A DNA stretch of 26,865 nt from a virus (IMGVR_UViG_3300042541_001510:1-26865), one strand, 5' to 3'; counted from the stretch's first letter, positions 1,604 through 18,701 are shown. The notes: generated by a model not told the origin, from the letters alone. Numbers and translations are program-made.

Positions 1604-1815
1604 GTTTAGAAGAGGCACAGGACTATGCGGTGAATAATTTCATCGCACAGTTCGGTGAACTACCTGAGAGAAGGGTAGAGAACAACACGCTAATTAACAT
1701 CATTCGTACCTGCGTAAAATGCGGGTACGTTTTGGCTATGGCCGATCAAACAATAGAAGATGCAACTACGGGACTATCAACAGACAATATCGACGGAAGC
1801 CTCAGGGCTGCTTAG
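1600..1815 (+). CDS. Small hypothetical protein overlapping the helicase gene (71 aa)
   Basis: The 71-aa frame uses a GTG start overlapping the upstream stop by 4 bases and ends 56 bases inside the helicase gene in another frame. Residues 1-50 look folded (FIAQFGELPERRVENN, then a CVKCGY segment); the C-terminal ~20 residues are encoded in the overlap and look unstructured. CVKC alone is not enough to claim a zinc site. I do not recognise the family. The continuous chain of overlapping genes supports it as real. An alternative in-frame GTG lies about 11 codons downstream. Confidence 0.6.
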   Translation: MSLEEAQDYAVNNFIAQFGELPERRVENNTLINIIRTCVKCGYVLAMADQTIEDATTGLSTDNIDGSLRAA

Positions 1816-2992
1816 TGTATTTGGGTATGCATATCTTGCTATGCAGGTACGCACAGGCAAGACCATCACAGCACTTGAGGCTGCTAGGTTATACGGAGCA
1901 AAGGATGTCATTATCCTGACAAAGAAGAAGGCCATATCAAGTATCGAGGCAGACTGTAAACACTTTAATTTCAACAGCACGGTTATCAACTACGAGTCGA
2001 TGCATAAGATAGGAAATATCAAATGCGACTTGATGATTGTGGACGAGGCTCACGGCCTTGGTGCGTTCCCTAAGCCCTCTCTCAGGGCAAAGAATGTATC
2101 TGCCATGTATCTAAAGTACCGGTTCCCTCCGGTTATACTACTCAGCGGCACTCCCACGCCGGAGTCGTACTCGCAAATTTACCATCAGCTATACTTTCTA
2201 GGGGAGGGGCCGTTTATGCGTTACCGCAACTTCTACAAGTGGGCAAAGGACTACGTCGATGTCAAACAGGTGTGGACATCAGGTATGCCAAAGAACGACT
2301 ACTCAGGGGCCAAGAAGGATAAGATCGACGAGGTCGTCAAGCCTTTTATGATAAGCTATACCCAACAAGAGGCAGGCTTTGAGTCCAAGGTTGAGGAGGA
2401 GATACTTTACGTTGATATGTCTTCAAGGACGGCCGGCATTATCGACACGCTAAAGAAAGACTTTATAGTCAATGGCAAGGACGAGACGATCATTGCAGAC
2501 ACCGGTGCCAAGCTAATGCAGAAGACACATCAGCTATGCAGCGGCACCGTAATCTTTGAGTCAGGTAATACGATGGTCATCGACCATACAAAGGCGAAGT
2601 TTATAAGGGAAAGGTTCTCGGGGAAGAAGATAGGGATATTCTATAAGTTCAAGGCTGAACTTGATGCTATCGAGTGTGTGTTTGGTCTAGACATCTGCAC
2701 CACCCTTGACGAGTTCGATAACTGCGATAAGTCTATAGCACTGCAGATACAATCCGGACGTGAGGGTGTAAGCCTAAAGAACGCAGAGTATCTTGTCTTC
2801 TATAACATCGACTTCAGTGCTACTAGTTACTGGCAGGCTAAGGACCGGATGACCACCATGGATCGTAAGTTTAATAAGGTCTACTGGGTGTTCTCAAGAG
2901 GAGGAATCGAGGAGGATATCTACAAGGCCGTATGTTCAAAGAAAAATTATACACTAAGCTATTTCAATAAATATGTCAAACTTTCAAAGTAA
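1760..2992 (+). CDS. DEAH-box SF2 (SNF2-like) helicase
   Basis: The 410-aa product has an N-terminal LRDYQ motif, a Walker A loop QVRTGKT (GKT at residues 33-35), a DEAH Walker B (residues 95-98), SGTPTP as motif III (around 129-133) and a C-terminal lobe with QSGREGVSL (motif V) and QAKDR (around 359-363) in the place of motif VI QxxxR. It should be an ATP-driven DNA translocase used in phage replication or recombination. Walker A has Arg where many SNF2 proteins have Gly. The start at 1760 is chosen because LRDYQ normally lies at the extreme N-terminus; this leaves a 56-base overlap upstream. The end overlaps the VRR-NUC gene by 20 bases, so the two are likely made together. Confidence 0.88.
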   Translation: MQLRDYQQTISTEASGLLSVFGYAYLAMQVRTGKTITALEAARLYGAKDVIILTKKKAISSIEADCKHFNFNSTVINYESMHKIGNIKCDLMIVDEAHGLGAFPKPSLRAKNVSAMYLKYRFPPVILLSGTPTPESYSQIYHQLYFLGEGPFMRYRNFYKWAKDYVDVKQVWTSGMPKNDYSGAKKDKIDEVVKPFMISYTQQEAGFESKVEEEILYVDMSSRTAGIIDTLKKDFIVNGKDETIIADTGAKLMQKTHQLCSGTVIFESGNTMVIDHTKAKFIRERFSGKKIGIFYKFKAELDAIECVFGLDICTTLDEFDNCDKSIALQIQSGREGVSLKNAEYLVFYNIDFSATSYWQAKDRMTTMDRKFNKVYWVFSRGGIEEDIYKAVCSKKNYTLSYFNKYVKLSK

Positions 2993-3224
2993 AATAATAT
3001 CTCAGTATGAGAAGACTGGGCACATTGTGTTGAATGTGATAAAGCTATCAGACAGCGGTTACCCTGACCTTATATGTCTAAAGGATGGAGTTGCTACCTT
3101 TATCGAATGCAAGGAGGCCAAGGATACATTGAAGCCGTTGCAAAGGCATCGTATAGACGAGCTAAACAAGGCCGGGTTCACCGCATTTTGCCTACAGGAG
3201 GGATTAGGTGTAATATATCCGTAG
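2973..3224 (+). CDS. VRR-NUC-type nuclease (83 aa)
   Basis: The short protein shows the core of the PD-(D/E)xK VRR-NUC family: GYPDLI (D32), then IECKE (E45, K47) and a following Q57 in the helix LKPLQRHRIDEL. At 83 aa it is a minimal, stand-alone nuclease domain, the usual form in phages. Relatives cut branched or flap DNA, so a structure-specific activity working with the adjacent helicase is likely; this is inference from family and context. The ATG overlaps the helicase end by 20 bases. Its stop is followed by a short promoter-bearing gap. Confidence 0.87.
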   Translation: MSNFQSKIISQYEKTGHIVLNVIKLSDSGYPDLICLKDGVATFIECKEAKDTLKPLQRHRIDELNKAGFTAFCLQEGLGVIYP

Positions 3225-3627: not shown

Positions 3628-3780
3628 ATGTCAATACAAGTAGAACTACGTAACAACCTATCAAAAACGTGGACGGTCAAGATGTTTGACCTATTCCCAT
3701 TCGTAAGAATTATAAGCTCATCCGATCAAACAGAAGTTGAGATCGGATGGCTTAGTTTTTCTATTGTGTTTATTTCTTAA
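3628..3780 (+). CDS. Possible small ORF at the convergent gene end (50 aa)
   Basis: An ATG frame starts 16 bases after the preceding stop and runs 50 codons to TAA at 3778-3780, overlapping the last 11 bases of the opposing giant gene. The C-terminus is hydrophobic (WLSFSIVFIS) and could insert in a membrane. Doubt arises because a terminator-like hairpin (3719-3749) with a T-tract lies inside the frame, which would cut the mRNA before the stop codon. It is either a genuine small gene with a read-through terminator or a chance frame in a transcription end region. Confidence 0.35.
   Translation: MSIQVELRNNLSKTWTVKMFDLFPFVRIISSSDQTEVEIGWLSFSIVFIS
3719..3760 (+). terminator. Rho-independent terminator candidate for the plus-strand block
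   Basis: A perfect 9-bp inverted repeat, CATCCGATC (3719-3727) with GATCGGATG (3741-3749), encloses a 13-base loop and is followed by GCTTAGTTTTT, giving a T-tract on the plus strand. It lies where the two transcription blocks meet, the expected place for a terminator. On the minus strand no T-tract follows the hairpin, so it acts best on plus-strand transcripts. Confidence 0.6.
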
Positions 3781-6700
3781 TCCAGCCCTCAGGAATTAGA
3801 TCAAACCCGGCGTGAGTCATTTTATAATACTCTGACTCTCTATCGTCTTTTTCGCCAGGAGTTCCCCATATAGTGCCCTTTACAGAGCCCTTGTAAAACT
3901 TATATTTTTCCTTTAGCTCGTCGTAGTCACTTAGCTCTACCATTGTAGGCTTCATTGCTTTTGTCATAACATTTTCAAAATCTTTAGCACCTGGCAATGT
4001 GCCCATAGTTGCAAGTCCTGATATAATTGCATCTCTAAAATACGCAGGGACATTTTTCTTGTTATCTCTAATAAGTTTGTTTTTCTCTTTGATTAATTTA
4101 TCTCGATAATCAAGACCGCTTTGTTCAAAAGGCACCTTTTCTCCCGACTCAATCTTTCTTAAATTTTCATCTATGGCCTTTATTTTGGATTGTGATTCAA
4201 GATAGTCATTGATACTAGTGCCTACGGCCCACGCTGCAGATGACGCCTTACCGTAAGGACCTACAGCTGCCTCTACTGTTTTTTGATATGCATCTTTGCT
4301 ATTAAAATCAGGCCACGAGCTATATAGAATGTTGTTCTTATATCTATTGTAATCCTCAGGGTGCAGGTACTTTGCATTAAGATATTCGACAGCCGTTGAT
4401 GTAAAGAATTTGTTTTGGATGTTCCCAAAGTTTCTACCCAAAACACCTTGTGCAACAAAACTACCAACTCCCTTTATAAAGTTATCTGAAAATGTATTTT
4501 CATCTGACGCTCTTTCTTGCAATTCTTTCATCGTGAATTTATTTTTATCAGACGTCATCATCACGTTATTCAAGTCTATAGAAGGGTCAATACCAGGTAT
4601 TCTAGGACTGGTCTTGGTAAGGAAATTAATTTGATTTTTTGCAGCAATTTTTCTAGTCTCCTTACTGTCAGGCTTGCCTTCAGTTATTGCTTGCGTTAAT
4701 TCGTCTTTATCATCATCATCATACAAGAAATGATGCATTGCTATACCTGCAGCTGCTAATCCTGAAGCTATTGCCCCTCTCATTGCCGTATATGTTCCTG
4801 CTCTTAACAATACTCCGCTTATTTGTTTTGCAGCGTCGGCTCTTGACATCTTTCCGCCTCTATGCATTGCTATTATTGCATCTGTAGTAATCTCGTATTC
4901 ATTACGACCATAGTTAGCCAGATAATTTTGAGTTTGGCCAAGCAATGTTCCATGTCTTTTTACGGTGATAGGGGACATTAACCAAGGGTTCTTAGCAGCA
5001 CCTGTATCTGTTACGTTCTTGTCTGCTATGTCTCTACTTTTATTTAGTGCATCTTCAAACTTGTCAAGATAGTTAACATCATTTTTAGCGATAGCTTCAA
5101 AATCAATATCCTGACCTGTTAATTTTTTAAAGTTCTTAGCCATTGATCCAAACCATAATGGTCTGATAATAGCTAGATCAGGTGCTGTCATCATAGTTTC
5201 GCTAACCGCTCTTAACCCTTTTTGAGGGGCCATCAAAGAATTATAGTATGCCTTTGTAGCGGCATTTACAGCAAATCCTCTAACGTTTTGCATATCGTTT
5301 GTAGATATTTCATAGCTCTCTGTGCTAAGGAATGCACCACTTAACGTACCATGAGGATATGCTCTATCTGTAGCGTAGCTATTTAAGTTTCTCATAATCT
5401 CACCACCAACTCCGTTAAGGGAATAGTCCTTATACTCTGTTATACCTAATGCCATCTCTTCCGGATAATTAGGCACTACATAGCTCAGATTACTTACAGC
5501 TTCCGAGGCAGATTTGCTAGGATTGGATAGCATATATGTTGTAGATGCTCTTGATACATAATCCCTTACATCTGACCATATATCACGGTGGAAGAACGAC
5601 CTAGATAGGGTGGCCTCAAGGACATCCTCAAATGTTTTTCTCATAGCCTTGGCAAACAATAATCTGCTTTCATTCTCCTTGCTTGGATCTGCCTTGTACA
5701 TCTCAAGAGACTTTGCTATAAAGCCATCTGTTATCTTGCTCATTGTTCTTAATGGCAACGTCATATGGTAGTCAAGCATTACATTCCTTACAGCCTTATT
5801 TGCCGAAGAGAACGGATCAAAATTTATAGGAGACGCTTGCCCTGTCCTCTCTTCTATTTGGCCAGCCTTTGTTTTAATAGAGCCTGCCGGAGTTATCCCT
5901 ATTGCTGCGTTTAATTCCCCTCTTTCATTTAAAACCTGTTCCGCACCTCTGCTTGTATTTTGGGTAACAATAGTTGTGTAATTCTCAAACGGATCGAATG
6001 GTTGATCGTGAATTTCTGATGCTACCTTCTGTGCATATGGGGTTAAAGTATCATACAATTTTCGAATCCCCTCGACTACCTTTTTTTCTGCAGGAGAGAA
6101 TGAATCCCATATTTTTTTTGAATCAATGTTACCATCTGTTGAATATAGCTCTGATAATTTTTTTAGCAGCTTCGCAGACTTTTCGTTCATAGGGTGTTTG
6201 CCAGACATTGAAGCCTCTATAGATTTTTCAACAAAGGCCATAGCCGGTGGAGACTTCTTAGAACCAGGATTGCTCTCGTGTTCAAGCTGTCTTAAATACA
6301 TTGTCATTTTAAAACCTGACTCTATAACCTTATTAAAGTCACCGCCCATGCTTTTCACAAGTTCATTTTTCAGCTTGTCGCTGTTCATTGTATTTAAGTC
6401 TGTCTTATAGCTAGACCAACCTTGCGCTATCTGCTTAATCCCGTTGTTAAATATTTCAAATCCTGGGTAGTTCTTTATGACGTTATCGATACGTTTAGCG
6501 GAGTTTCTTAATAACGCATGGTAGAACTTAGAGTTCCCGCTAAATGATAAAAACTTCCTTATCCCTTGCACTGCATTTTCAATAGCAAGCAAACCTACCT
6601 TACCCCTTGTTACTCTAACCCTTTCGCTAATACCCCTGTCAACATCCTTTGACATTTTTATCTTGTTCAATATGTAAGGGATTCTACCCATGACTCCATT

Positions 6701-9700
6701 GGTAAGTAGGTGGTCCATCGCCTCAAGTGCACGGATCTTATCCTTAGGGTCTACGATATCATCTGCAGTCATCTTAACTAACTTAGATAGCTTTATCTTA
6801 TCCTCGTCAGATAGGTCGTATTTCTCTCCATCAATAGGGGATATGCCTGACTTTATCATATCCCTTATAGAGTCTGCCATAGCATTAAATCTATCACGAA
6901 TGTAATCCTCAATAGACGGGGCAACTGTATCAGGCTCTTCTGATCTTACATCTATGCCTGTTGCCTCTAATAGATTTGCTTCATCCATTTCGGCTATTTT
7001 TTGTGCCACCTCATCTGTATAATCTGAGAGTTCCTTTATGTTTATTGCCTTACGAGTTCTATCAGATATCTCTCCCTCCTTAACCCCTATCCCGCTTGAA
7101 GATGTTGCATCTAATAGTCGTCTACCCATTTCAAGGTGAGCGTCTATGTCCTCTACTTTTGTTACGTTAGCCTCTGTAAATTTTTTGGCGGCCATTCTTA
7201 ATTGCGATTCTACCTCCTTAGACTTAATAGCCTTTTTTACTCTCTTGTTAATTTCTCTGGCCTCATTTAATTTATCTGCATAGTCCGCATCGTTGAACAC
7301 CTTCTCTGCATAGTCAAGGTATCTGTCAACCATATCAGGATTGGCAGTGTTTACATTGGCGAATCTGTTCAAAAGAGCTTTTGCTTGGTTTGCAGTAATT
7401 TGCCCCCTTCCTTGCATTTCTTTTAACTTGGCGGCTATTTCTCTTAGCGGGTCTACAACAGACTTCTTCCCTTCTTTAGCGGCTTCATAAATTAATCTTA
7501 CCTTCTCCTTTAACTCTTTAAATTCACTTACCTCCTTTATGTCGCCAGACTTAGAGTTTTTCTCAATCTCTACAATCTTGTCAAACGCCTTATTAAGAGA
7601 TGCCTCATCTTTGACACTTGAGATTACGCTCATGATCTTTTCGTAGTCACCTCTTGTGAATGAATCTTTTCTCCCTTTGACCAAATCTGTTATTGTCTTA
7701 CGTGCATCTACAACAGCCTTGGTTGCTTCTTTAGCGGCTTCATAAATTAATCTTACCTTATCCTTTAACTCTTTAAATTCACTAACTTCCTTTATGTCAC
7801 TAGCCTTAGAGTTCTTTTCAATCTCTACAATCTTGTCAAACGCCTTATTAATAGAGGCCTCATCTTTGACATTTGACATTATGTCTATGATCTTTTCATA
7901 GTCAGCTCTTGTGAATGAATCTTTGCTCCCCTTTACTAGTTCTATTATTTCCTTACGTGCGTCTACAACAGACTTGGCCGCTTTATTTGCAGCATTAATC
8001 TCAAGTTTGATCTGATCCTTTAATGCGGTACGCTCAGTGATTGTGATCTCCTTAGGCTTCTCTCCGGAGATCTTAGCCTGTGATGGTGCAGCCTTAATCT
8101 TAATGTTGTTGTCTTCCTTGAACCCCATAACGGCAGCGTTATACTCCTCCTGATTGTTCCTAATCCAAGGTGCCCATTTCTTCTCTGCGTCGGCTATTGC
8201 ATTTTCGATGATGTCCTTCTTTTCGCCAGTCTCTTTGTTCCTGTTAAAGAACCCTTGCATCTCGTCTTTAAATTCTTCGCCTTTATCACTCAGCTGTTGC
8301 TTGGACTTAGGAGTTTCTGCGATGGATTGTTCTACTGCCTTTACAAGCTCAGGATTGCTGCCATTCGCTTTTGCTTCAGCATATGCTTCGGCTATTTTTT
8401 TTGAGTTAATCTCTTTTATATTTACAGGAACCCCATTATCATCAAAACCATGTTTTTTTAGATCAAATGGCTGCTCTCTATATAAATCTTTTGTATTTGC
8501 TTTTTTATTTATATCTATTACTTCTTTGTCCGATAAAATCCTAACAACCTTCATTTCTCCAGATATCATCCAGCTGCCACTCATATTAGAGTTTGTCTTA
8601 TACTTGTAAAACCCCCCTTCTGGTACTTGATCTGTTATATGAGCTGTTCTTGCTATTACTTCTCCATTTTTATTTAATTCAGCCCTTTTATTTGCTTCTG
8701 ATTGCCAATCCTTATCGTTTGCTACCTCTACCTCTGCCCATACTTGATTATTAGGTCTTATAGACGGTTTTATATCTGACGCATTCTTTTTCTCGCCTAT
8801 ATGTGTAGCTATAGGTATATCCCCAGAATGCCATCCTGGCCTGTACGCTAAATTTCCAAGTTTAGATTTTACCATTGTCTTCCCACTTTTTGACGTAGTT
8901 TGATCTCCAACTTCTGCTTTTGTCCAAGTACCAAATGGCACAGATTTATCAGATTTTACAAACAATGGGAATAGCTCTCCAGGCTTTTTAGGATCTACTC
9001 TAAAAAGTTTATAAGCCTTTTCTGTATTTTTTGGAGATGGCACATCGGTAGGTAAATATTTCTTTATTTTTTCAACAGACGATTCGTCTATGTCGTTTAT
9101 TTTTTTAGCCACATCCTCGCTCAGCTGCTGCTTGGATTTAGGTTTGTTCTCATTGGCGACGTACTTCTCTAGCTTTGGATTGAAGACGGTAGATGTGTGG
9201 TAGTCAGGGTGAGGCTTCTCGTAAGTCTCTCCCTTCATTACCTTCGTAGTCTGAGCACGTAGGTCATTGCCCCACTTGGCGACGGTCATATCATAGCCTG
9301 CCTTTGCAGCCTCCTGAGAGACGAATGCGACCTGCTTGTTCTTGTCGAAGGCTTGTCCTGGGTACATCTTTTCAAACGTAGCCTTGGCCTTGTCCATCAG
9401 GTTCATAGGGTCGCTGTTGAAAGGATATACCTTATCCTTAGGGACACGCACCACATAACCGTAGCTACCGCCGACATCTCGTCTGTCAGGTCGTGTGTAG
9501 TACATACTCACTCCTATTCCAGGACGCTCGTCTCTGCCCGTTCTAAGGTTCTTGCCAAAGTGTCTTGGGTCGATGCTCGGGATCTTCCCCGGAGAGTAGT
9601 GGTAGAATAAATAGTTCCCCTTCTCATCCTCCGTCATATCCTTTGTCATCTTCGCATCGTCAACTAACGACTGCTTGGATTTGGGTTTAGCTTCATTAAC

Positions 9701-12700
9701 CGCTCCACCAGTTTTTTCATTTGATCCTTGTTCAAGTGTTGAGCTAGTTCGTGAGGCTCCTCTACTTTTAACTCGTTCTTCTGCAGCTGTTGCTTGTTCT
9801 CCAAGTCCTCGTTCTTCTGCAATCTTTTTAAATTCTCCTCCATAAGATAGTTTTTTTGTTGATTCTTTTTCACCGCCTAATACTGCCCAAATATCTTTTT
9901 CTGGGAACCAGATAATTGCTTGTATGTCGGCATTTGTTAATACTATATTTTTGTTTCCAAGTTTTGCTCTTACTTTGTTTATAATTCTTGATATAACCTG
10001 CCTATCTCTATCTGTAGGAACATCTATAGGCTTTAAATCATTTATAATAACAACAGCCGACTTATGCCATTCAGGCTTTCTTTTGCTTATTTCCTTATTA
10101 GTTGGGTGTGATGACATCCCTTTTGAATTATAAAAATCACTAAGCCACTTATCCAGGGATAAAGGTTTCCTTTTGTTTAATCTTTCTTTTTTTGCATATT
10201 CGTTGTATTTTTCTTTTGCTTTACTTCTGTATTTTGAAAGTTCAGAAGCTATTTGTTCGTAACTTTTTTTACCAGATAAAAAATCTTCATACATAAGTTT
10301 TGTCATTGGTTGATCATGTATTGATTTATACATACTATCGCCCTTCGCTTTTACTTTAGAAGCAAAATCTAAAAATTCAGATTTTAATTCTTCGTTGCCA
10401 TCAAGCAAGCTTTCTATTTTTTTGCTATTGTATTTTTTTACAATTTCAGGGATTTCTACACCTATAAAATTTTTTGATTTTTTTGTTTCAATTACAAGTC
10501 TATCTAGTCTATCCTTAGTTACACCATCGCCTACTACATCGCCTGTCATCCTACCCCACGTTCTTCTTGCCCACAAATCTATAGTAACCGGATAATAATT
10601 ACCCATCAAATTTTGCAAAAACCCTTGACCTATTTTAGGTCCAAATATTGCAGACCCATAAACTACATCGTTTCTATATCCAGATATTGTGACTTTTTTG
10701 TTTATTAATTTAGATACTTCTTTTTCTAAATCAGAAACTTTAAATTCTTTTTTGCAAAAATCCATCAATCCGCTAAGTCCTACGTTATCTATAAAAACAT
10801 TAGCCAATTCAAGATTGCCACTTATTGATTCTGCTTTTGACCCATACTCTTTAGATGAGTCAAATCTACCGGTTTTCTTAAATGCATCGTATTGCTCTTC
10901 TCCATACCTTGAATTAACTGCTACATCTAAATTTTGAGAGGTTATGGCAAGTGGTAGCCTAACTGCAAAACTAGCCGCATCTTCCGGGATTGGTTCGTTT
11001 GCAAATGCTTCTATTTTAACAGCCTCTTTTCTGTCATTTATTTCCGGATGCATTACGGATATTATTTCTAACGCTAGCTCTATCTCTTTTGTATACCAAT
11101 CTTCAGCATTGCCTTGTTTTTTTAACTCTAGCTCTACTTCTTCTGCTATATTATCTACAATTATTCTTTCTTGCTCTTCTGTTATTGTATCACTTGTTAC
11201 TATTTCCCCTCCCCAAAACTCCATTGCTTTTTCTTGTAGCATTTTTGCTATATTAGAGTTATCTTGTTTTTCCCCTTTGGGGGGTATCATTTCGTTTTGC
11301 CTAGAAAGTATACTTTTTGCAGACATCAATACTCTTTCTTCATCCTTTAGTTGCTGCGTTGACCTTGGCTTCTCATTTGCATCCTTCTCACTCACCGATT
11401 CTTCCTTCTTACTCACCGGTTCTTCCTTTGGCGTGTATTTCTCGTTGAGCTTGATTTCCTTACCTGCATGAAGAGCCTCGGATAATGATGAGAAATAGTC
11501 CACTAGCTCGTTGCTGTTCTTGATGTCTTCAAATGGGCTGAACCTGCCTAGGCTTACCTTGTTTATTATTTTGTTGATGGCAGCTGCCACCTTACGCATT
11601 ACTGTAGGCTCAATCTTACCGCCACCCATAATGGCAGCAAGCTCTGTCAGATACTCATTAGACTTTTTGCTTTCGCCGTACATCTTGATAAAGTTTAACA
11701 GATATTGGTTCTTTGTTTCGCCTACCAATGAAGCCACCTGTTTCTTTAAATAGTCAAACATTTTAGGGTTATCTCCAAATGCCTTCTCTAAAATAACGTG
11801 GCCAATCTCGTGAGCGACTGTTATTCTATTGGCACCTGCAGCTAGGTTAAGGTCAATACGAATACTTCCGTCTCCAAATACCCCGTAATTACCTTTAACG
11901 TTTTCGGCCCTTCGCCTTTTACCATCTTTCCCATTTACATCATATGCGTCTAATACTTTTTGCATACTCTCGTGGGTATCGTGAAACCTTACGTCTATGT
12001 TAGGCATTATCGATTTGATAGCTGCCAGTCCTTTTTTCAAAGCACTAAACATAGGCTTATGCTGAGGCATCTGGGCCTCAAGCTCAGGTGTGAATTTAGC
12101 ACCTCCTGGGTCACTCTTTTCGGCCTTAGGCTCTGCCTGCTCCCTAATTAAATTATTTATCTCGGCCGTCTTATTGGTGAATATGTCTTTCTCCCTATCC
12201 GATAAGGGCTCTTTGTTTTTTACCTTACTTGCAATGTTTTCTAATCTTTTAGGGTCTACCTTGCCGGTGTCGATAAATTCTTTGTGTTCACTATCACTAA
12301 CTTCACCAAGCGGTTTAGCTTCTTGCTTTGCTGCCGGCTCTTCTACTGGCTTTTCATTGCCAAGTTCAACGTCTTTTTTAATCCCCTCCAGTCTGTCTAT
12401 CTCCTTTTGTATTGGAGCCTTCTCCTCAGGTTCTGCAGCGTCTAATTTTTCTTTGCTAGATTCAATTAGCTCATCTATAACAGGTGCAGGATCCTCCTTG
12501 GCCCTTTCGTGTGCATCCGGGTTAGACGTAGCTAACTCTTCAACAAAATCATCCACCCTACCCTTAGCAGCCTTTTGTTCTTCTGTAGGCTCTACCGGTG
12601 TAGCCTCAGTAGGCTTGCCTTCTTCCGTGGTAGGGGCTTCCTTTTCTGAAAGAGTTCTTTCAATATGCGATGCCGCAATCTTCTCTATCTCCTTGTTATT

Positions 12701-15430
12701 ATTCTCAATTCTTTTCTTAAATTGTGCAGCAAACGATTCATTAAGCCCAGACATCTGAGCTTCGTAGTTTTTATTTTGAAGTAATAATTTTGTTACTGTA
12801 TACCTATCGGTTCTATTTAAATCTTCTGGTATTTGAGACATTATGTCTTTAAATATAGTAATAGATTTAAATTGACTGGCCGCTTCTTTAGGCGTAATTT
12901 CTCCTAGTGCTAATTTTCTTCTTATTTCATTATGTGCTATACTAAATGCGGCAGGATTGCTATACATTTCGTCTACCGTATTAAATACAGATCTATTTAA
13001 TACACCTTCCTTAACGGCAGAATGCATACCAGTTATAGTACCAAAAAACGTCCCATTAAAAAGACCTTCCGCTCCCCTTTCAAAAGCATCGCCTAAAACT
13101 TTATATACGCTTTTTTTATCATATATCTCTTCTCCTTTTGCAAAATTTACAACTTTATTTAGTCCTTCCCCGGCAACAGTTGATGCAAAGTCCAATGTCC
13201 CAAATGAGACACCGCCAGCAAGAGCACTAGACAAAATAGTTTTAACACCACTCATAGTGCTAGGCAGCCCTTTAAACACATTATATGTCATATTGTTTAT
13301 GCCTATTCCTAAATTGCCCTTCCCCTTTATGCCGGCCTTTAATCCCAGTGACATAGTAGCGGTACTGACAATAGCGTTACCTAAAGCCACTACATTTTTC
13401 TCGTCTTCGCTAAGTTTATTTGTTTCAGGGTTTTCATATAGCGATTGTTTTACACTTGAAAATGAGCTAATAAGCATAAGTGCTTCTGAGGCGGTTGCCC
13501 CTGCAGCTAATTTTACTTCCCCTAATGCCATATACGGTAGCATGCTGGCACTAAACTCTAGCCCCTTCATAAATGTACCTGCAGATTGGAGATGCTCAGG
13601 AGACGATTGAGATACAGCCTGTATTAAGCTAGATGCTTTTTTATCAAGATTTTTATTTAAATCTGCCGCTTCTTCCTGAGAAAAATCTTTTGTTATATAC
13701 GGGGCTATAGTTGATAATGATTGAAGGACAACTTTGCCGATGTCTGCTGGAATCCCCAATAATATTCTTGCTACGTCACCTGACGTAGACCCTTGTAATT
13801 TTTGTATTGAAAATAAATTATTGTATTTAGATACAGCAGAACTTGACATTGCATCTAACCCTAATCTCAGATTATCTACGTCCTCTTTTAAATTGTCAAG
13901 ATGCAGCTTTTGATTAGGCGTAATTGCAACGCCAGAATTTTGTATGCCCTCTATTTCTTTAGCATAATCATTATACTCAGCTACTTTGTCCTTTAACGTA
14001 ACTGATATTTCATTAGCTCTTTTATTCGTCTTTGATACAAGTTCACTTAACTCGTCAACTCTGGGGTCAATTGGACGCCCAGAAACTTCATCCATTCTTA
14101 TATTAGGAGCACCAAGCCCAAACTTTCCTTCTCTATTCAGCCAATTTGCATCTACTGATGGCGAAGGTTGAATTGATGCCATTTTTGTATATGGCGATGT
14201 TAATGCTACATCTTCATCAGTAAAAATAGGTGCATTGTCACCGGTCTTTAATGTCTTTTTTGAGAGCATGGCTATATTATTAGCACGCTCATTATATCTG
14301 GCTAAATATTCTTTTCTTTTTTGCTCTAAATTAAATGCAGAGTTATCTGTTGCAAGATTAGGTGCCGCAATGTCTCCACGTGCTCCGCCTGTTGGCTGAA
14401 TTGAGCTTATTTGATTCCTAAAATCTTCTAGGCCTTTAGTTGTTTGTATCCCCTCTATCTTTTTATTGAATGGGATTGTCCCATCTTTACCAGGCTTAAA
14501 GGCACTAACCGCAGTTTGGAAGTCAGTGTACATAGGGATATTAGCACCTAGCTCTTTGTTAACCAAAGCCACTTGATTATTGGCAGTCTCAAGAAATTTA
14601 TTTTGCTCTGCCTTAGACTTGGTAGCTGATGCAGTTTTTTCTAATGAGACTAGATCCCCCTTTCTTTTTTCAAAATCTTCGTAGCTACTAAACTCCGGGA
14701 ATTTTTTTATTTCAGGAGAAATGCTTCCATACACTTCCTTTAGTTTAGAGATCGACCCATTTGCCTCCTTTACACTAGATAACTTATATGTATTACCAAC
14801 TGATTCCCAGTCAATTGCCTTGTAAGATTCAAACGGTTTAAATTCAACTCCTAAATTTTTTGACCGCTTTGCCATATCGGCGTTTAAGTCTTCAACAGCC
14901 GCAGACTGAGCTTTACCTAGTAGCTCAGGCGTAAGGTCCTTCCTATCCTTTATTTTTGGTAACCCTCTTTTATTTGACAGCTGCTTTACGATCTCATTAT
15001 ACTGAGTTAATTCAGATTGAGCCTTATTAGCATCATGTAGTTTAGTGTAGTTTTCGTCATTTATATCTTCATACTTTTCAGCCTTACCTGCCTTATATTC
15101 AGGGTACTTAGTTGATAACGTATTGTACTCATTTAATGTCCCTACCTCAACCTTGGTCTTTAACACATTGTACTCTTCGTCAGGGATATCCTGTGCAAAC
15201 TTATATTTCACTAATGCCTTCTCGCCCTCTGCAAGGTTCGAGTTGTGCCAGTCCACATTGTTGTTGAAGAAGTCAATATCCTTCAACACGGCTGCAGGCT
15301 TCTCTGGCTCTACAGGAGGCGGTGCTTCAGGCGTTACTGCTACATCTACCTGTTGCGTTTGCTCGTCAATAATAGGCACCGGCTGTTCTGCCGGTGCTGT
15401 TGTAATGTCTGTTATGTTATCTTCTATCAT
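3770..15430 (-). CDS. Giant polyvalent, gp16-position ejection (internal virion) protein, 3886 aa
   Basis: This is the last gene of the late operon, in the place of T7 gp16. Order of parts: acidic/proline-rich N-terminus (1-60); helical region; hydrophobic stretch (about 560-770) that could enter membranes; acidic linkers; zinc-peptidase motif HEIGH (about 1207-1211) with a downstream TELAA glutamate as possible third ligand; cassette A (about 1365-1910, motifs VTIDLWARRTWGR and IIWFPEKDIWAVLGG); cassette B (about 1925-2090), ADP-ribosyltransferase-like (FYHYS, MYYTRPD); cassette C (about 2105-2370, GELFPLF, LAYRPGWHSGD); 85-aa tandem repeats (about 2470-2660); long helical C-terminus with a hydrophobic helix near 3545-3570. 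A KPKSKQQL-type linker borders each cassette. This matches polyvalent proteins injected with phage DNA. ATG 15430 follows the upstream stop by 1 base. Individual domain functions are inferred. Confidence 0.85.
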   Translation of the reverse strand: MIEDNITDITTAPAEQPVPIIDEQTQQVDVAVTPEAPPPVEPEKPAAVLKDIDFFNNNVDWHNSNLAEGEKALVKYKFAQDIPDEEYNVLKTKVEVGTLNEYNTLSTKYPEYKAGKAEKYEDINDENYTKLHDANKAQSELTQYNEIVKQLSNKRGLPKIKDRKDLTPELLGKAQSAAVEDLNADMAKRSKNLGVEFKPFESYKAIDWESVGNTYKLSSVKEANGSISKLKEVYGSISPEIKKFPEFSSYEDFEKRKGDLVSLEKTASATKSKAEQNKFLETANNQVALVNKELGANIPMYTDFQTAVSAFKPGKDGTIPFNKKIEGIQTTKGLEDFRNQISSIQPTGGARGDIAAPNLATDNSAFNLEQKRKEYLARYNERANNIAMLSKKTLKTGDNAPIFTDEDVALTSPYTKMASIQPSPSVDANWLNREGKFGLGAPNIRMDEVSGRPIDPRVDELSELVSKTNKRANEISVTLKDKVAEYNDYAKEIEGIQNSGVAITPNQKLHLDNLKEDVDNLRLGLDAMSSSAVSKYNNLFSIQKLQGSTSGDVARILLGIPADIGKVVLQSLSTIAPYITKDFSQEEAADLNKNLDKKASSLIQAVSQSSPEHLQSAGTFMKGLEFSASMLPYMALGEVKLAAGATASEALMLISSFSSVKQSLYENPETNKLSEDEKNVVALGNAIVSTATMSLGLKAGIKGKGNLGIGINNMTYNVFKGLPSTMSGVKTILSSALAGGVSFGTLDFASTVAGEGLNKVVNFAKGEEIYDKKSVYKVLGDAFERGAEGLFNGTFFGTITGMHSAVKEGVLNRSVFNTVDEMYSNPAAFSIAHNEIRRKLALGEITPKEAASQFKSITIFKDIMSQIPEDLNRTDRYTVTKLLLQNKNYEAQMSGLNESFAAQFKKRIENNNKEIEKIAASHIERTLSEKEAPTTEEGKPTEATPVEPTEEQKAAKGRVDDFVEELATSNPDAHERAKEDPAPVIDELIESSKEKLDAAEPEEKAPIQKEIDRLEGIKKDVELGNEKPVEEPAAKQEAKPLGEVSDSEHKEFIDTGKVDPKRLENIASKVKNKEPLSDREKDIFTNKTAEINNLIREQAEPKAEKSDPGGAKFTPELEAQMPQHKPMFSALKKGLAAIKSIMPNIDVRFHDTHESMQKVLDAYDVNGKDGKRRRAENVKGNYGVFGDGSIRIDLNLAAGANRITVAHEIGHVILEKAFGDNPKMFDYLKKQVASLVGETKNQYLLNFIKMYGESKKSNEYLTELAAIMGGGKIEPTVMRKVAAAINKIINKVSLGRFSPFEDIKNSNELVDYFSSLSEALHAGKEIKLNEKYTPKEEPVSKKEESVSEKDANEKPRSTQQLKDEERVLMSAKSILSRQNEMIPPKGEKQDNSNIAKMLQEKAMEFWGGEIVTSDTITEEQERIIVDNIAEEVELELKKQGNAEDWYTKEIELALEIISVMHPEINDRKEAVKIEAFANEPIPEDAASFAVRLPLAITSQNLDVAVNSRYGEEQYDAFKKTGRFDSSKEYGSKAESISGNLELANVFIDNVGLSGLMDFCKKEFKVSDLEKEVSKLINKKVTISGYRNDVVYGSAIFGPKIGQGFLQNLMGNYYPVTIDLWARRTWGRMTGDVVGDGVTKDRLDRLVIETKKSKNFIGVEIPEIVKKYNSKKIESLLDGNEELKSEFLDFASKVKAKGDSMYKSIHDQPMTKLMYEDFLSGKKSYEQIASELSKYRSKAKEKYNEYAKKERLNKRKPLSLDKWLSDFYNSKGMSSHPTNKEISKRKPEWHKSAVVIINDLKPIDVPTDRDRQVISRIINKVRAKLGNKNIVLTNADIQAIIWFPEKDIWAVLGGEKESTKKLSYGGEFKKIAEERGLGEQATAAEERVKSRGASRTSSTLEQGSNEKTGGAVNEAKPKSKQSLVDDAKMTKDMTEDEKGNYLFYHYSPGKIPSIDPRHFGKNLRTGRDERPGIGVSMYYTRPDRRDVGGSYGYVVRVPKDKVYPFNSDPMNLMDKAKATFEKMYPGQAFDKNKQVAFVSQEAAKAGYDMTVAKWGNDLRAQTTKVMKGETYEKPHPDYHTSTVFNPKLEKYVANENKPKSKQQLSEDVAKKINDIDESSVEKIKKYLPTDVPSPKNTEKAYKLFRVDPKKPGELFPLFVKSDKSVPFGTWTKAEVGDQTTSKSGKTMVKSKLGNLAYRPGWHSGDIPIATHIGEKKNASDIKPSIRPNNQVWAEVEVANDKDWQSEANKRAELNKNGEVIARTAHITDQVPEGGFYKYKTNSNMSGSWMISGEMKVVRILSDKEVIDINKKANTKDLYREQPFDLKKHGFDDNGVPVNIKEINSKKIAEAYAEAKANGSNPELVKAVEQSIAETPKSKQQLSDKGEEFKDEMQGFFNRNKETGEKKDIIENAIADAEKKWAPWIRNNQEEYNAAVMGFKEDNNIKIKAAPSQAKISGEKPKEITITERTALKDQIKLEINAANKAAKSVVDARKEIIELVKGSKDSFTRADYEKIIDIMSNVKDEASINKAFDKIVEIEKNSKASDIKEVSEFKELKDKVRLIYEAAKEATKAVVDARKTITDLVKGRKDSFTRGDYEKIMSVISSVKDEASLNKAFDKIVEIEKNSKSGDIKEVSEFKELKEKVRLIYEAAKEGKKSVVDPLREIAAKLKEMQGRGQITANQAKALLNRFANVNTANPDMVDRYLDYAEKVFNDADYADKLNEAREINKRVKKAIKSKEVESQLRMAAKKFTEANVTKVEDIDAHLEMGRRLLDATSSSGIGVKEGEISDRTRKAINIKELSDYTDEVAQKIAEMDEANLLEATGIDVRSEEPDTVAPSIEDYIRDRFNAMADSIRDMIKSGISPIDGEKYDLSDEDKIKLSKLVKMTADDIVDPKDKIRALEAMDHLLTNGVMGRIPYILNKIKMSKDVDRGISERVRVTRGKVGLLAIENAVQGIRKFLSFSGNSKFYHALLRNSAKRIDNVIKNYPGFEIFNNGIKQIAQGWSSYKTDLNTMNSDKLKNELVKSMGGDFNKVIESGFKMTMYLRQLEHESNPGSKKSPPAMAFVEKSIEASMSGKHPMNEKSAKLLKKLSELYSTDGNIDSKKIWDSFSPAEKKVVEGIRKLYDTLTPYAQKVASEIHDQPFDPFENYTTIVTQNTSRGAEQVLNERGELNAAIGITPAGSIKTKAGQIEERTGQASPINFDPFSSANKAVRNVMLDYHMTLPLRTMSKITDGFIAKSLEMYKADPSKENESRLLFAKAMRKTFEDVLEATLSRSFFHRDIWSDVRDYVSRASTTYMLSNPSKSASEAVSNLSYVVPNYPEEMALGITEYKDYSLNGVGGEIMRNLNSYATDRAYPHGTLSGAFLSTESYEISTNDMQNVRGFAVNAATKAYYNSLMAPQKGLRAVSETMMTAPDLAIIRPLWFGSMAKNFKKLTGQDIDFEAIAKNDVNYLDKFEDALNKSRDIADKNVTDTGAAKNPWLMSPITVKRHGTLLGQTQNYLANYGRNEYEITTDAIIAMHRGGKMSRADAAKQISGVLLRAGTYTAMRGAIASGLAAAGIAMHHFLYDDDDKDELTQAITEGKPDSKETRKIAAKNQINFLTKTSPRIPGIDPSIDLNNVMMTSDKNKFTMKELQERASDENTFSDNFIKGVGSFVAQGVLGRNFGNIQNKFFTSTAVEYLNAKYLHPEDYNRYKNNILYSSWPDFNSKDAYQKTVEAAVGPYGKASSAAWAVGTSINDYLESQSKIKAIDENLRKIESGEKVPFEQSGLDYRDKLIKEKNKLIRDNKKNVPAYFRDAIISGLATMGTLPGAKDFENVMTKAMKPTMVELSDYDELKEKYKFYKGSVKGTIWGTPGEKDDRESEYYKMTHAGFDLIPEGWIKK
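7452..8030 (-). repeat. Tandem 255-bp repeat inside the giant gene (two full copies plus a partial third)
   Basis: Two closely similar copies (7452-7706 and 7707-7961) with a period of 255 bp are followed by a diverged partial third copy to about 8030. Each encodes an 85-aa helical unit containing YEKI, KDEAS, NKAFDKIVEIEKNSK and VSEFKEL. The period is a whole number of codons, so copy number can change without breaking the frame. DNA identity remains high between the two full copies, which points to recent duplication. Confidence 0.88.
8291..8320 (-). repeat. Linker repeat copy 4 (PKSKQQL), cassette C / repeat-region border
   Basis: Encodes AETPKSKQQL near residues 2371-2380. It is the most divergent copy upstream of the PKSKQQL core, but the core is identical to copy 3. 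It follows the AT-rich cassette C. Confidence 0.75.
9121..9160 (-). repeat. Linker repeat copy 3 (NENKPKSKQQL), cassette B / cassette C border
   Basis: Encodes ANENKPKSKQQLS near residues 2091-2104. It lies exactly where base composition changes from the G+C-richer ART-like cassette to the AT-rich cassette C. DNA similarity to copies 2 and 4 (core tgcttggattta on the plus strand) shows common descent. Confidence 0.8.
9661..9700 (-). repeat. Linker repeat copy 2 (NEAKPKSKQSL), cassette A / cassette B border
   Basis: Encodes VNEAKPKSKQSLV near residues 1911-1924. It marks the switch from AT-rich cassette A to the G+C-richer cassette B. Confidence 0.8.
11341..11380 (-). repeat. Linker repeat copy 1 (NEKPRSTQQL), peptidase region / cassette A border
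   Basis: Encodes ANEKPRSTQQLK near residues 1351-1364, just after a small acidic duplication (EEPVSKKEESVSEK) that closes the zinc-peptidase region. It is the most diverged copy in the core (R and T replacing two K). Confidence 0.75.
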
Positions 15431-17894: not shown

Positions 17895-17903
17895 GCAAAT
17901 TTA
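17895..17903 (-). promoter_or_regulatory. Bacteroidota-type -7 box (TAAATTTGC) overlapping a stop codon
   Basis: On the minus strand TAAATTTGC is followed by agt and then the GNAT ATG, the same 3-base spacing as the boxes at 32-40 and 26102-26110. Its first three bases are the TAA stop of the 266-aa gene. It would start a leaderless mRNA for the GNAT-gp14-gp15-giant part of the operon. Confidence 0.65.
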
Positions 17904-18701
17904 CGGAAAAGACTTGAATATATCGCTTGAAATTGAGAAGAGTTCTACCTTGAGTGTACTAATTATTGTAATCGTGCCGGTCATGTACGATCCACGTAGC
18001 CCAAATGACTCTGTTGTTATGTTTTTAGACACTACAATCATATTCCCAATGGCTGGTGTGTTATACGGAGTGTCTGTATAATAATAAGAAAACCCACCTG
18101 CCTGATAGTACGCCGTTAACGGTCCTATTTTTTTAGGGCTATTTGTAATTGGGTCTATAAAATATAGCAAATCCCCATAGTCATTCCCATCTGGATCTAC
18201 CGCCGGAGGAGGTATTGCAGACAATGTTCTGACCACATACTTGTATGGGGCTACCGAGCTTTTGTCGTATAGAATTCCGACACCCTGCTCCTTTAACGTA
18301 GTATCAAATTCGTTAACTGTAGATATTATGTGGGCATAAGACTCCCCCTCCTTGTTATAAAATGCATCAGCAGCAACTCCGCCTTCAAAGTTTCTATTTG
18401 ATAGAGATGTTTTAAAACTTGCATAAATAGATTGATTGTCAGGGTAATTCCCTGAGAATGAGAATGTTTTAAACATCTTCACCTCTGTAGGTGAGTCGTT
18501 GAAACATATGTCTATTGTAGAGTCACCTGTTGTGCCGCCGTAATATCTATTCCTTAGCGGATTGATGTAGTGCTTCCATATCTGACCGCTCTTGAATGTA
18601 TACAGGTAATTGTTCATACCTATAGCCCACTCAGGCTGATAGCTAAAGAATGATGTAAACCCGTCTAGTTGAGGCTGGTAAGCCACTGTATATTGTGCCA
18701 T
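17901..18701 (-). CDS. Tail-associated structural protein of podovirus type (266 aa)
   Basis: The start (YQPQLDGFTSFFSYQPEWAIGMNNYLYTFK followed by GQIWKHY) fits a pattern I associate with structural proteins of Bacteroidota podoviruses, in which an SFFSYxPEW segment precedes MNN and YTFK. The remainder is beta-rich. No enzyme motif is seen. Its place between the adhesion candidate and the GNAT/ejection genes suggests a part of the tail hub or a fibre-attachment factor; this is inference. ATG 18701 lies 10 bases after the upstream stop in an AT-rich spacer. Confidence 0.65.
   Translation of the reverse strand: MAQYTVAYQPQLDGFTSFFSYQPEWAIGMNNYLYTFKSGQIWKHYINPLRNRYYGGTTGDSTIDICFNDSPTEVKMFKTFSFSGNYPDNQSIYASFKTSLSNRNFEGGVAADAFYNKEGESYAHIISTVNEFDTTLKEQGVGILYDKSSVAPYKYVVRTLSAIPPPAVDPDGNDYGDLLYFIDPITNSPKKIGPLTAYYQAGGFSYYYTDTPYNTPAIGNMIVVSKNITTESFGLRGSYMTGTITIISTLKVELFSISSDIFKSFP

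What the first reader, a model, noticed from the sequence alone, without database searches (positions are those of the whole stretch)
8280..11400. Four copies of a KPKSKQQL linker separate three cassettes inside the giant protein
Seen: [A/V]NE-x-KP[K/R]S[K/T]Q[Q/S]L at 11341-11380, 9661-9700, 9121-9160, with PKSKQQL again at 8291-8320. The similarity extends to DNA. Each copy falls at the border of a distinct domain. Inference: the linkers are recombination seams that allow in-frame capture and exchange of effector cassettes, or cleavage sites, or both. I know of no description of this motif.
Basis: partly seen in the sequence, partly recalled or inferred. Interest (0 to 1): 0.78.

Follow-up and report, generated by a model that had tools for sequence, protein, structure and literature searches.

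The report
Linker seams in a phage effector protein
A giant phage protein is built from interchangeable effector blocks joined by a short repeated peptide, and related phages swap, lose or reorder blocks at these peptides, which shows where such proteins break and rejoin.

Summary
One 3886-aa ORF (15430-3770, minus strand) has KPRSTQQL, KPKSKQSL, KPKSKQQL and TPKSKQQL at aa 1354, 1915, 2096 and 2373. None of 1000 shuffles gives such a four-copy family. The linkers lie in low-confidence segments of the model between a zincin-like peptidase, a DUF7178-like cassette, an ART-fold cassette and a PHROG 30118 cassette.

The "seam" reading is largely supported. The nearest relative (G001) carries the ART cassette at 96.5% DNA identity; identity starts exactly at linker 2 and stops just past linker 3, and the neighbours differ on both sides. 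More distant giants carry their own version of an [STA][KR]xQ border peptide. Two hold the ART and PHROG 30118 cassettes in opposite order, with homology ending at these peptides. In Elemovirus, a cassette lies between 26-nt perfect direct repeats where three relatives have one copy and no cassette.

Among window linkers codons are shared by 2-4 only; in several other giants the peptide is conserved without its codons, so a protein-level role is also likely. Cleavage is untested. I found no prior description. Domain shuffling in polyvalent proteins is known; these peptide seams are a new variant.

The parts
3770..15430 (-). Giant ORF, 3886 aa: modular (polyvalent-type) protein downstream of a block of predicted virion structural genes
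   Evidence: neighbouring genes match PHROG virion structural families
11381..12061 (-). Zincin-like peptidase module (aa 1124-1350; HEIGH at aa 1207-1211), shared with Elemovirus, L018, L046 and L048
   Evidence: blastp to elemo aa 1449-1652, 28%, E 4e-13, ending 4 aa before the linker 1 core; weak Pfam Peptidase_M78; HExxH
11348..11380 (-). Linker 1, ANEKPRSTQQL
   Evidence: model residues 12-22, in or beside pLDDT <50 stretches 1-17 and 19-22
9701..11347 (-). Cassette 1 (aa 1362-1910), DUF7178-like, homologous to segments of giant proteins of ctQRb9, ctEw122, DC33, L023 and L031
   Evidence: Pfam DUF7178 E 0.03, below cut-off
9665..9700 (-). Linker 2, VNEAKPKSKQSL; left border of the 96.5% identical block with G001
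9158..9664 (-). Cassette 2 (aa 1923-2091), ART-fold domain (folded part aa 1925-2071)
   Evidence: pdb_via: 6kyf Z 8.2, ParT 6.9, RES toxins 6.5, cyanophage A4 pre-ejectosome 5.7, tankyrase 4.0, PARP1 3.9; 17 viral relatives
9114..9691 (-). Block shared with G001 at 96.5% DNA identity; unrelated DNA on both sides
   Evidence: 4-fold-site divergence 0.14 against 0.28-0.57 for most shared genes
9122..9157 (-). Linker 3, ANENKPKSKQQL; right border of the block
8315..9121 (-). Cassette 3 (aa 2104-2372), PHROG 30118; replaced by a kinase-like segment in G001
   Evidence: phrog_30118 E 6e-61 at aa 2137-2329; 36 viral relatives; kinase-like is read by eye, no Pfam match
8291..8314 (-). Linker 4, TPKSKQQL; 20-nt identical island with G001 inside unrelated flanks
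3773..8290 (-). C-terminal part of the giant protein, partly shared with L022, L027, L033, L047 and L048

Best explanation
The giant gene encodes a modular polyvalent protein, probably packaged in the virion and ejected into a Bacteroidota host. A peptidase-like module, a DUF7178-like cassette, an ART-fold cassette and a PHROG 30118 cassette are joined by disordered border peptides. Shown: relatives have exchanged, lost or reordered whole cassettes, and the homology borders fall at these peptides. Shown: linkers 2-4 of the window share DNA by descent. Inferred: exchange runs by recombination between short linker-encoded homologies (about 20-30 nt) during co-infection, and joining at a linker keeps frame and fold. 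Inferred: the peptide is also kept for a protein-level reason, because other giants repeat a similar [STA][KR]xQ peptide without sharing codons. That reason could be flexible spacing for passage through the tail, or recognition by a protease.
For: G001 borders: identity begins at GCTAAACCCAAATCCAAGCAG (linker 2) and ends within a few bases after linker 3; linker 4 is a 20-nt island in unrelated flanks, its six KSKQQL codons all identical. Linkers 2-4 share rare codons, p = 5e-5. L047 and L048 carry cassettes 2 and 3 in opposite order, each block starting and ending at RAQK-type linkers. Elemovirus: a cassette lies between 26-nt perfect direct repeats 396 nt apart, and three relatives have a single copy and no cassette; random pairs of positions reach at most 13 nt in 400 draws. 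Elemo/L028 homology restarts at RQQK at 92.9% for 4.8 kb after an exchanged cassette. [STA][KR]xQ occurs 29 times in ten giants of this group against 10.1 by shuffling, maximum 18. Of 27 linker sites in seven giants, 21 lie within 15 aa of a homology-block end, against 8.6 expected. Window linkers fall in low-pLDDT stretches, and so do linkers 2-4 of G001 apart from the first residue or so of linker 4.
Against: Codons are not shared between linker copies beyond chance in L018, L046, L048 and L072, so DNA homology cannot be the only reason for the repeat. Only one close relative of the window with this gene is known, and its gene is cut by the contig end. Some exchange borders have no repeated linker: the elemo A/D left border, the elemo cassette C left border, and the LPEEEQTKLK border. 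The motif regex was chosen after seeing the sequences. Virion packaging was not tested, and the Bacteroidota host is inferred from the Flavobacterium phage relatives. No recombinase of the window's own phage was identified.
Confidence: 0.68

Rival explanations
1. Selection only. Recombination is blind and falls anywhere; recombinants that break inside a folded domain die, so surviving borders lie in linkers. The repeated peptide is only a spacer kept for its flexibility.
For: Phage mosaicism is usually put down to non-homologous exchange plus selection (PMC3029335). Several Elemovirus borders have no repeated linker. Linker peptides are repeated without shared codons in L018, L046, L048 and L072.
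Against: It does not explain base-exact borders at the linker, the 20-nt codon-identical island at linker 4, the shared rare codons of linkers 2-4, or the 26-nt direct repeats around the elemo cassette.
Confidence: 0.35
2. Proteolytic release. The linkers are cleavage sites for the peptidase module of the same protein, or another phage or host protease, and free single effectors before or after ejection. This can be true together with the seam reading.
For: The peptidase module sits directly before linker 1 and carries HExxH. Polyvalent proteins are proposed to be processed by zincin-like peptidases (PMC5512222). The peptide is conserved without its codons in several giants and lies in predicted disorder.
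Against: L047 has five linker-like motifs but HEAWE in place of HExxH, so processing in cis by that domain cannot be general. Elemovirus giants have HExxH but few such motifs. From the literature, N4 virion RNAP is packaged unprocessed (PMC5512222). Not tested experimentally.
Confidence: 0.3
3. Assembly artefact: the metagenomic contigs are joined wrongly at short repeats or at the shared cassette.
For: The window and G001 are virus records of IMG/VR, and linkers are repeats.
Against: Linker repeats are 18-23 nt. Both genes stay open in one frame through every junction. The cassette-containing state with its direct repeat is seen in sequenced Elemovirus isolates, and independent records show the same pattern.
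Confidence: 0.05

Closest known systems
Polyvalent proteins of phages and conjugative elements (Iyer et al. 2017, PMC5512222)
   Same: Long multidomain phage proteins combining zincin-like peptidase, ART, kinase-type and uncharacterised domains; recombinational variability was suggested there
   Different: That paper does not use the word 'linker'; in the passages read it describes neither repeated border peptides nor exchange at them
Domain mosaicism of phage proteins (Smug et al. 2023, PMC10684548)
   Same: Ongoing exchange of protein fragments between phage proteins
   Different: Agnostic on mechanism by its own statement, 0 uses of 'linker' or 'polyvalent'; reported functional groups are tail proteins, lysins and replication proteins
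Short conserved boundary sequences at phage mosaic joints (discussed in PMC3029335)
   Same: Short homology at module borders proposed to guide recombination
   Different: Those are discussed as junctions between genome modules; here they lie within one gene and encode an interdomain peptide
Elemovirus giant structural protein (MT497075 and relatives)
   Same: Peptidase module before the ART cassette, similar genome position, cassettes exchanged at short repeated or shared sequences
   Different: Linkers are RQQK and QEDAVQKQ, not KPKSKQQL; sequence identity of matched parts to the window is about 21-39%
CdiA toxins exchanged downstream of a VENN motif (named from general knowledge; papers listed not read)
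   Same: A short conserved peptide marks the border of an exchangeable effector
   Different: One border and one C-terminal cassette, against four internal borders here; no VENN in this protein

Membership tests
Polyvalent proteins | Several unrelated enzymatic or nucleic-acid domains in one phage-encoded polypeptide | tested here: met
   Peptidase-like module, ART-fold cassette and PHROG 30118 cassette in one ORF
Polyvalent proteins | Zincin-like peptidase domain | tested here: inconclusive
   HEIGH at aa 1207, Pfam M78 only E 0.023 below cut-off; not folded
Polyvalent proteins | Delivered into the host with the DNA | not testable with these tools
   Only gene position beside virion structural genes and the annotation 'structural protein' of the Elemovirus relative
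ADP-ribosyltransferase superfamily (cassette 2) | ART fold | tested here: met
   Best VIA matches are ART/RES-type structures, Z 8.2 to 3.9; Z near 8 is modest, but the leading rows agree
ADP-ribosyltransferase superfamily (cassette 2) | Catalytic residues and activity | not tested
   Conserved HYS and YT positions seen in alignments but not mapped to a catalytic triad
DUF7178 (cassette 1) | Pfam gathering score 27 | tested here: not met
   14.7 bits, E 0.03; I call it DUF7178-like, not a member
PHROG 30118 (cassette 3) | Match to the family profile | tested here: met
   E 6e-61 over 189 of 194 positions
Crassvirales | Core crAss-like gene set and order | not tested
   Only a muzzle C-terminal domain match in the 266-aa neighbour
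Mosaic boundary sequences | Short conserved sequence exactly at exchange borders | tested here: met
   Window/G001 linkers 2-4 and the elemo 26-nt repeat

The most novel reading that the evidence does not exclude
A border code: giant ejected phage proteins carry a short basic-x-Q peptide at every module joint, in a version special to each phage. It serves at once as recognition site for a protease that frees the effectors in the host and as homology for exchanging them, so the phage has both a polyprotein and an open cassette array.
Probability: 0.15. Interest if true: 0.85.

Novelty: new variant of a known kind. Interest (0 to 1): 0.62.

Why it matters
Phages carry large arrays of effector domains against host defences, and how such arrays are rebuilt is not known. 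Peptide seams at the joints would give a rule for finding module borders in proteins that match no known family. They would also give a testable mechanism for intragenic exchange, and suggest where such proteins might be cut. Cultured Elemovirus isolates and their Flavobacterium host make the question open to experiment.

Tried and rejected
A single-protein search with the whole C-terminal 2887 aa and one with the 497-aa neighbour found no relatives; the neighbour query missed G001 although they share DNA. The KPKSKQQL DNA pattern hit three viral contigs (my estimate for chance is about 1.7): only L007 (G001) is real, L008 and L009 are unrelated frames. The linker DNA pattern also hit L044, unrelated. 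One genome-contig scan with cassette 2 found nothing, so no prophage or host link was made. L035 is an 86% relative in the muzzle-like gene, but its contig ends before the giant gene. A plain count of shared codons among linkers 2-4 was not significant (p about 0.12); only the rarity-weighted test was. Repeated linkers are not a feature of all giants: L019-L023, L025, L029-L031, CRP-212 and the ctQRb9 group showed no clear border repeat in the pairwise scan, and the [STA][KR]xQ motif is not enriched in the remaining giants (23 against 17.3). Foldseek against PDB with the G001 model gave nothing with E below 0.001; 6kyf was first at E 0.04. A profile search of PDB sequences with the ART cassette found nothing. 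Assembly artefact was considered and judged unlikely. Early structure alignments (A6, A7) misplaced cassette 1 and were discarded.

Full report
**What is there.** The window is a 26,865-base virus record. One minus-strand ORF of 3886 aa (15430-3770) holds all four reported linkers: ANEKPRSTQQL, VNEAKPKSKQSL, ANENKPKSKQQL and TPKSKQQL, beginning at aa 1351, 1911, 2092 and 2373. None of 1000 shuffles of the protein gives a four-copy family of this kind. Genes beside it match PHROG virion structural families, and one carries a crAss-like muzzle C-terminal domain.

**What lies between the linkers.** Before linker 1 is a zincin-like peptidase module with HEIGH at aa 1207; its similarity to the Elemovirus giant protein ends at aa 1350, four residues before the KPRSTQQL core. 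Between linkers 1 and 2 is a segment shared with giant proteins of freshwater podophages, weakly DUF7178-like. Between linkers 2 and 3 is an ART-fold domain: the leading structural matches are an anti-CRISPR protein (6kyf, Z 8.2), ParT and RES toxins, a segment of the cyanophage A4 pre-ejectosome, an Rhs toxin domain, tankyrase and PARP1. Between linkers 3 and 4 is PHROG 30118 (E 6e-61). The linkers fall in stretches with pLDDT below 50. The model is weak overall (mean pLDDT 49), so this supports disorder but does not prove it.

**Nearest relative.** A DNA pattern for KPKSKQQL found one true relative, IMGVR_UViG_3300037493_001326 (G001), whose structural genes match the window at 75-95% DNA identity. 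Its giant gene shares 578 nt with the window at 96.5%. Identity begins at GCTAAACCCAAATCCAAGCAG, the start of linker 2, and stops a few bases after linker 3. The DNA on both sides is unrelated: a diverged cassette 1 on the left, and a kinase-like segment in place of PHROG 30118 on the right ('kinase-like' is read by eye, no Pfam match). At linker 4 the two genes share a 20-nt island inside unrelated flanks, with all six KSKQQL codons identical. The shared block has few changes at 4-fold sites (0.14), like the giant's N-terminus (0.15) and one small gene (0.12), while most shared genes lie at 0.28-0.57. Both genomes are mosaics, and which side moved cannot be told.

**DNA or peptide?** Linkers 2-4 of the window share rare codons (TCC, CTG) more than codon usage allows (p = 5e-5), so their DNA has a common origin. 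A plain count of shared codons did not reach significance. Linker 1 shares only the peptide. In L018, L046, L048 and L072 the repeated peptide does not share codons beyond chance; in L047 the result is borderline (p = 0.06). So a peptide-level constraint is likely as well.

**Other giants.** Relatives of cassettes 2 and 3 show the same plan with other peptides: SKAQ in L046, ARAQK and ARSQK in L047, TRAQK, TKAQK and TRGQK in L048, SKSQ and TKSQAK in L018, KSRQQ in G001, RQQK in Elemovirus. L047 reads linker-ART-linker-PHROG 30118-linker; L048 reads linker-PHROG 30118-linker-ART-linker. The two homology blocks (59% and 69% identity) begin and end at these linkers. A pattern [STA][KR]xQ drawn from these cases (x = Q, A, S, M or G) occurs 29 times in ten giants against 10.1 by shuffling, maximum 18. 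Of 27 sites (these hits in seven giants, plus window linkers 1-2 and G001 linker 2) 21 lie within 15 aa of a homology-block end against 8.6 expected. The pattern was chosen after seeing the sequences, and blocks from related giants are not independent, so these figures are descriptive. Giants from other phages use other peptides at similar places (KSADR in L049, YSRR in L072), which I did not pursue.

**Cultured relatives.** In Elemovirus the cassette at aa 1066-1190 lies between two perfect 26-nt copies of CACAAGAAGATGCCGTTCAAAAGCAA, 396 nt apart, and L026, L028 and L033 have one near-identical copy and no cassette. A second indel has a 13-nt repeat, at the edge of chance. Elemo and L028 differ across a whole cassette and become 92.9% identical for 4.8 kb from the RQQK linker onward. 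Isolate D differs from isolate A over about 2 kb in the N-terminal part and is 99.4% identical after LPEEEQTKLK, the same right border as A/L028; that border is not a repeated linker. The relatives L026, L028 and L033 are IMG/VR records, but the state with the cassette is in sequenced isolates.

**How it most likely works.** Cassettes are exchanged, lost and reordered as units at short border peptides (shown). Exchange through short linker-encoded homology is the best account for linkers 2-4 and the 26-nt repeat (inferred). Survival of recombinants that break between folds must contribute, and may suffice where no repeat exists. Protease recognition is possible and untested: five linker-like motifs coexist with a broken HExxH in L047, which speaks against general processing in cis by that domain. 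Virion packaging of the window's protein is inferred from gene position only.

**Known or new.** Polyvalent proteins and their variability are described (PMC5512222), as are domain mosaicism (PMC10684548) and short boundary sequences between modules (PMC3029335). In the passages of these papers that I read I found no repeated interdomain peptide acting as exchange border; searches of the open library found none, but most subscription papers are not in it.

Noticed in passing
window 7471-7977: Tandem duplication of about 85 aa (aa 2485-2653 region, 88% DNA identity over 252 nt) downstream of linker 4.
   Followed up: no
window 17901-18701: 266-aa protein with a crAss muzzle C-terminal domain above the Pfam cut-off, in a phage otherwise unplaced.
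   Followed up: no
L045 2920-14193 versus L002 2-11005: Elemovirus D and A isolates from one host differ over about 2 kb inside the giant gene, with 99.4% identity after the right border: a recent intragenic exchange in cultured phages.
   Followed up: partly
L049, L053 and L072 giant ORFs: Giant proteins of other phages repeat KSADR or YSRR peptides; in L049 several precede ART-like (YHGT) segments.
   Followed up: no
L006 (PQ492659): Limnohabitans phage DC33 is filed under Inoviridae though it is a 39-kb record with a 9.4-kb giant gene like those of podophages.
   Followed up: no
L015 17747-19315: G001 carries a chaperonin GroEL-like gene (phrog_5725).
   Followed up: no
L047 giant ORF, aa 921: Zincin-like module with HEAWE in place of HExxH: probably inactive.
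   Followed up: no
window 1760-3224: A helicase-like ORF (410 aa) matches only the middle of a 1881-position helicase profile and overlaps a short endonuclease-like ORF.
   Followed up: no
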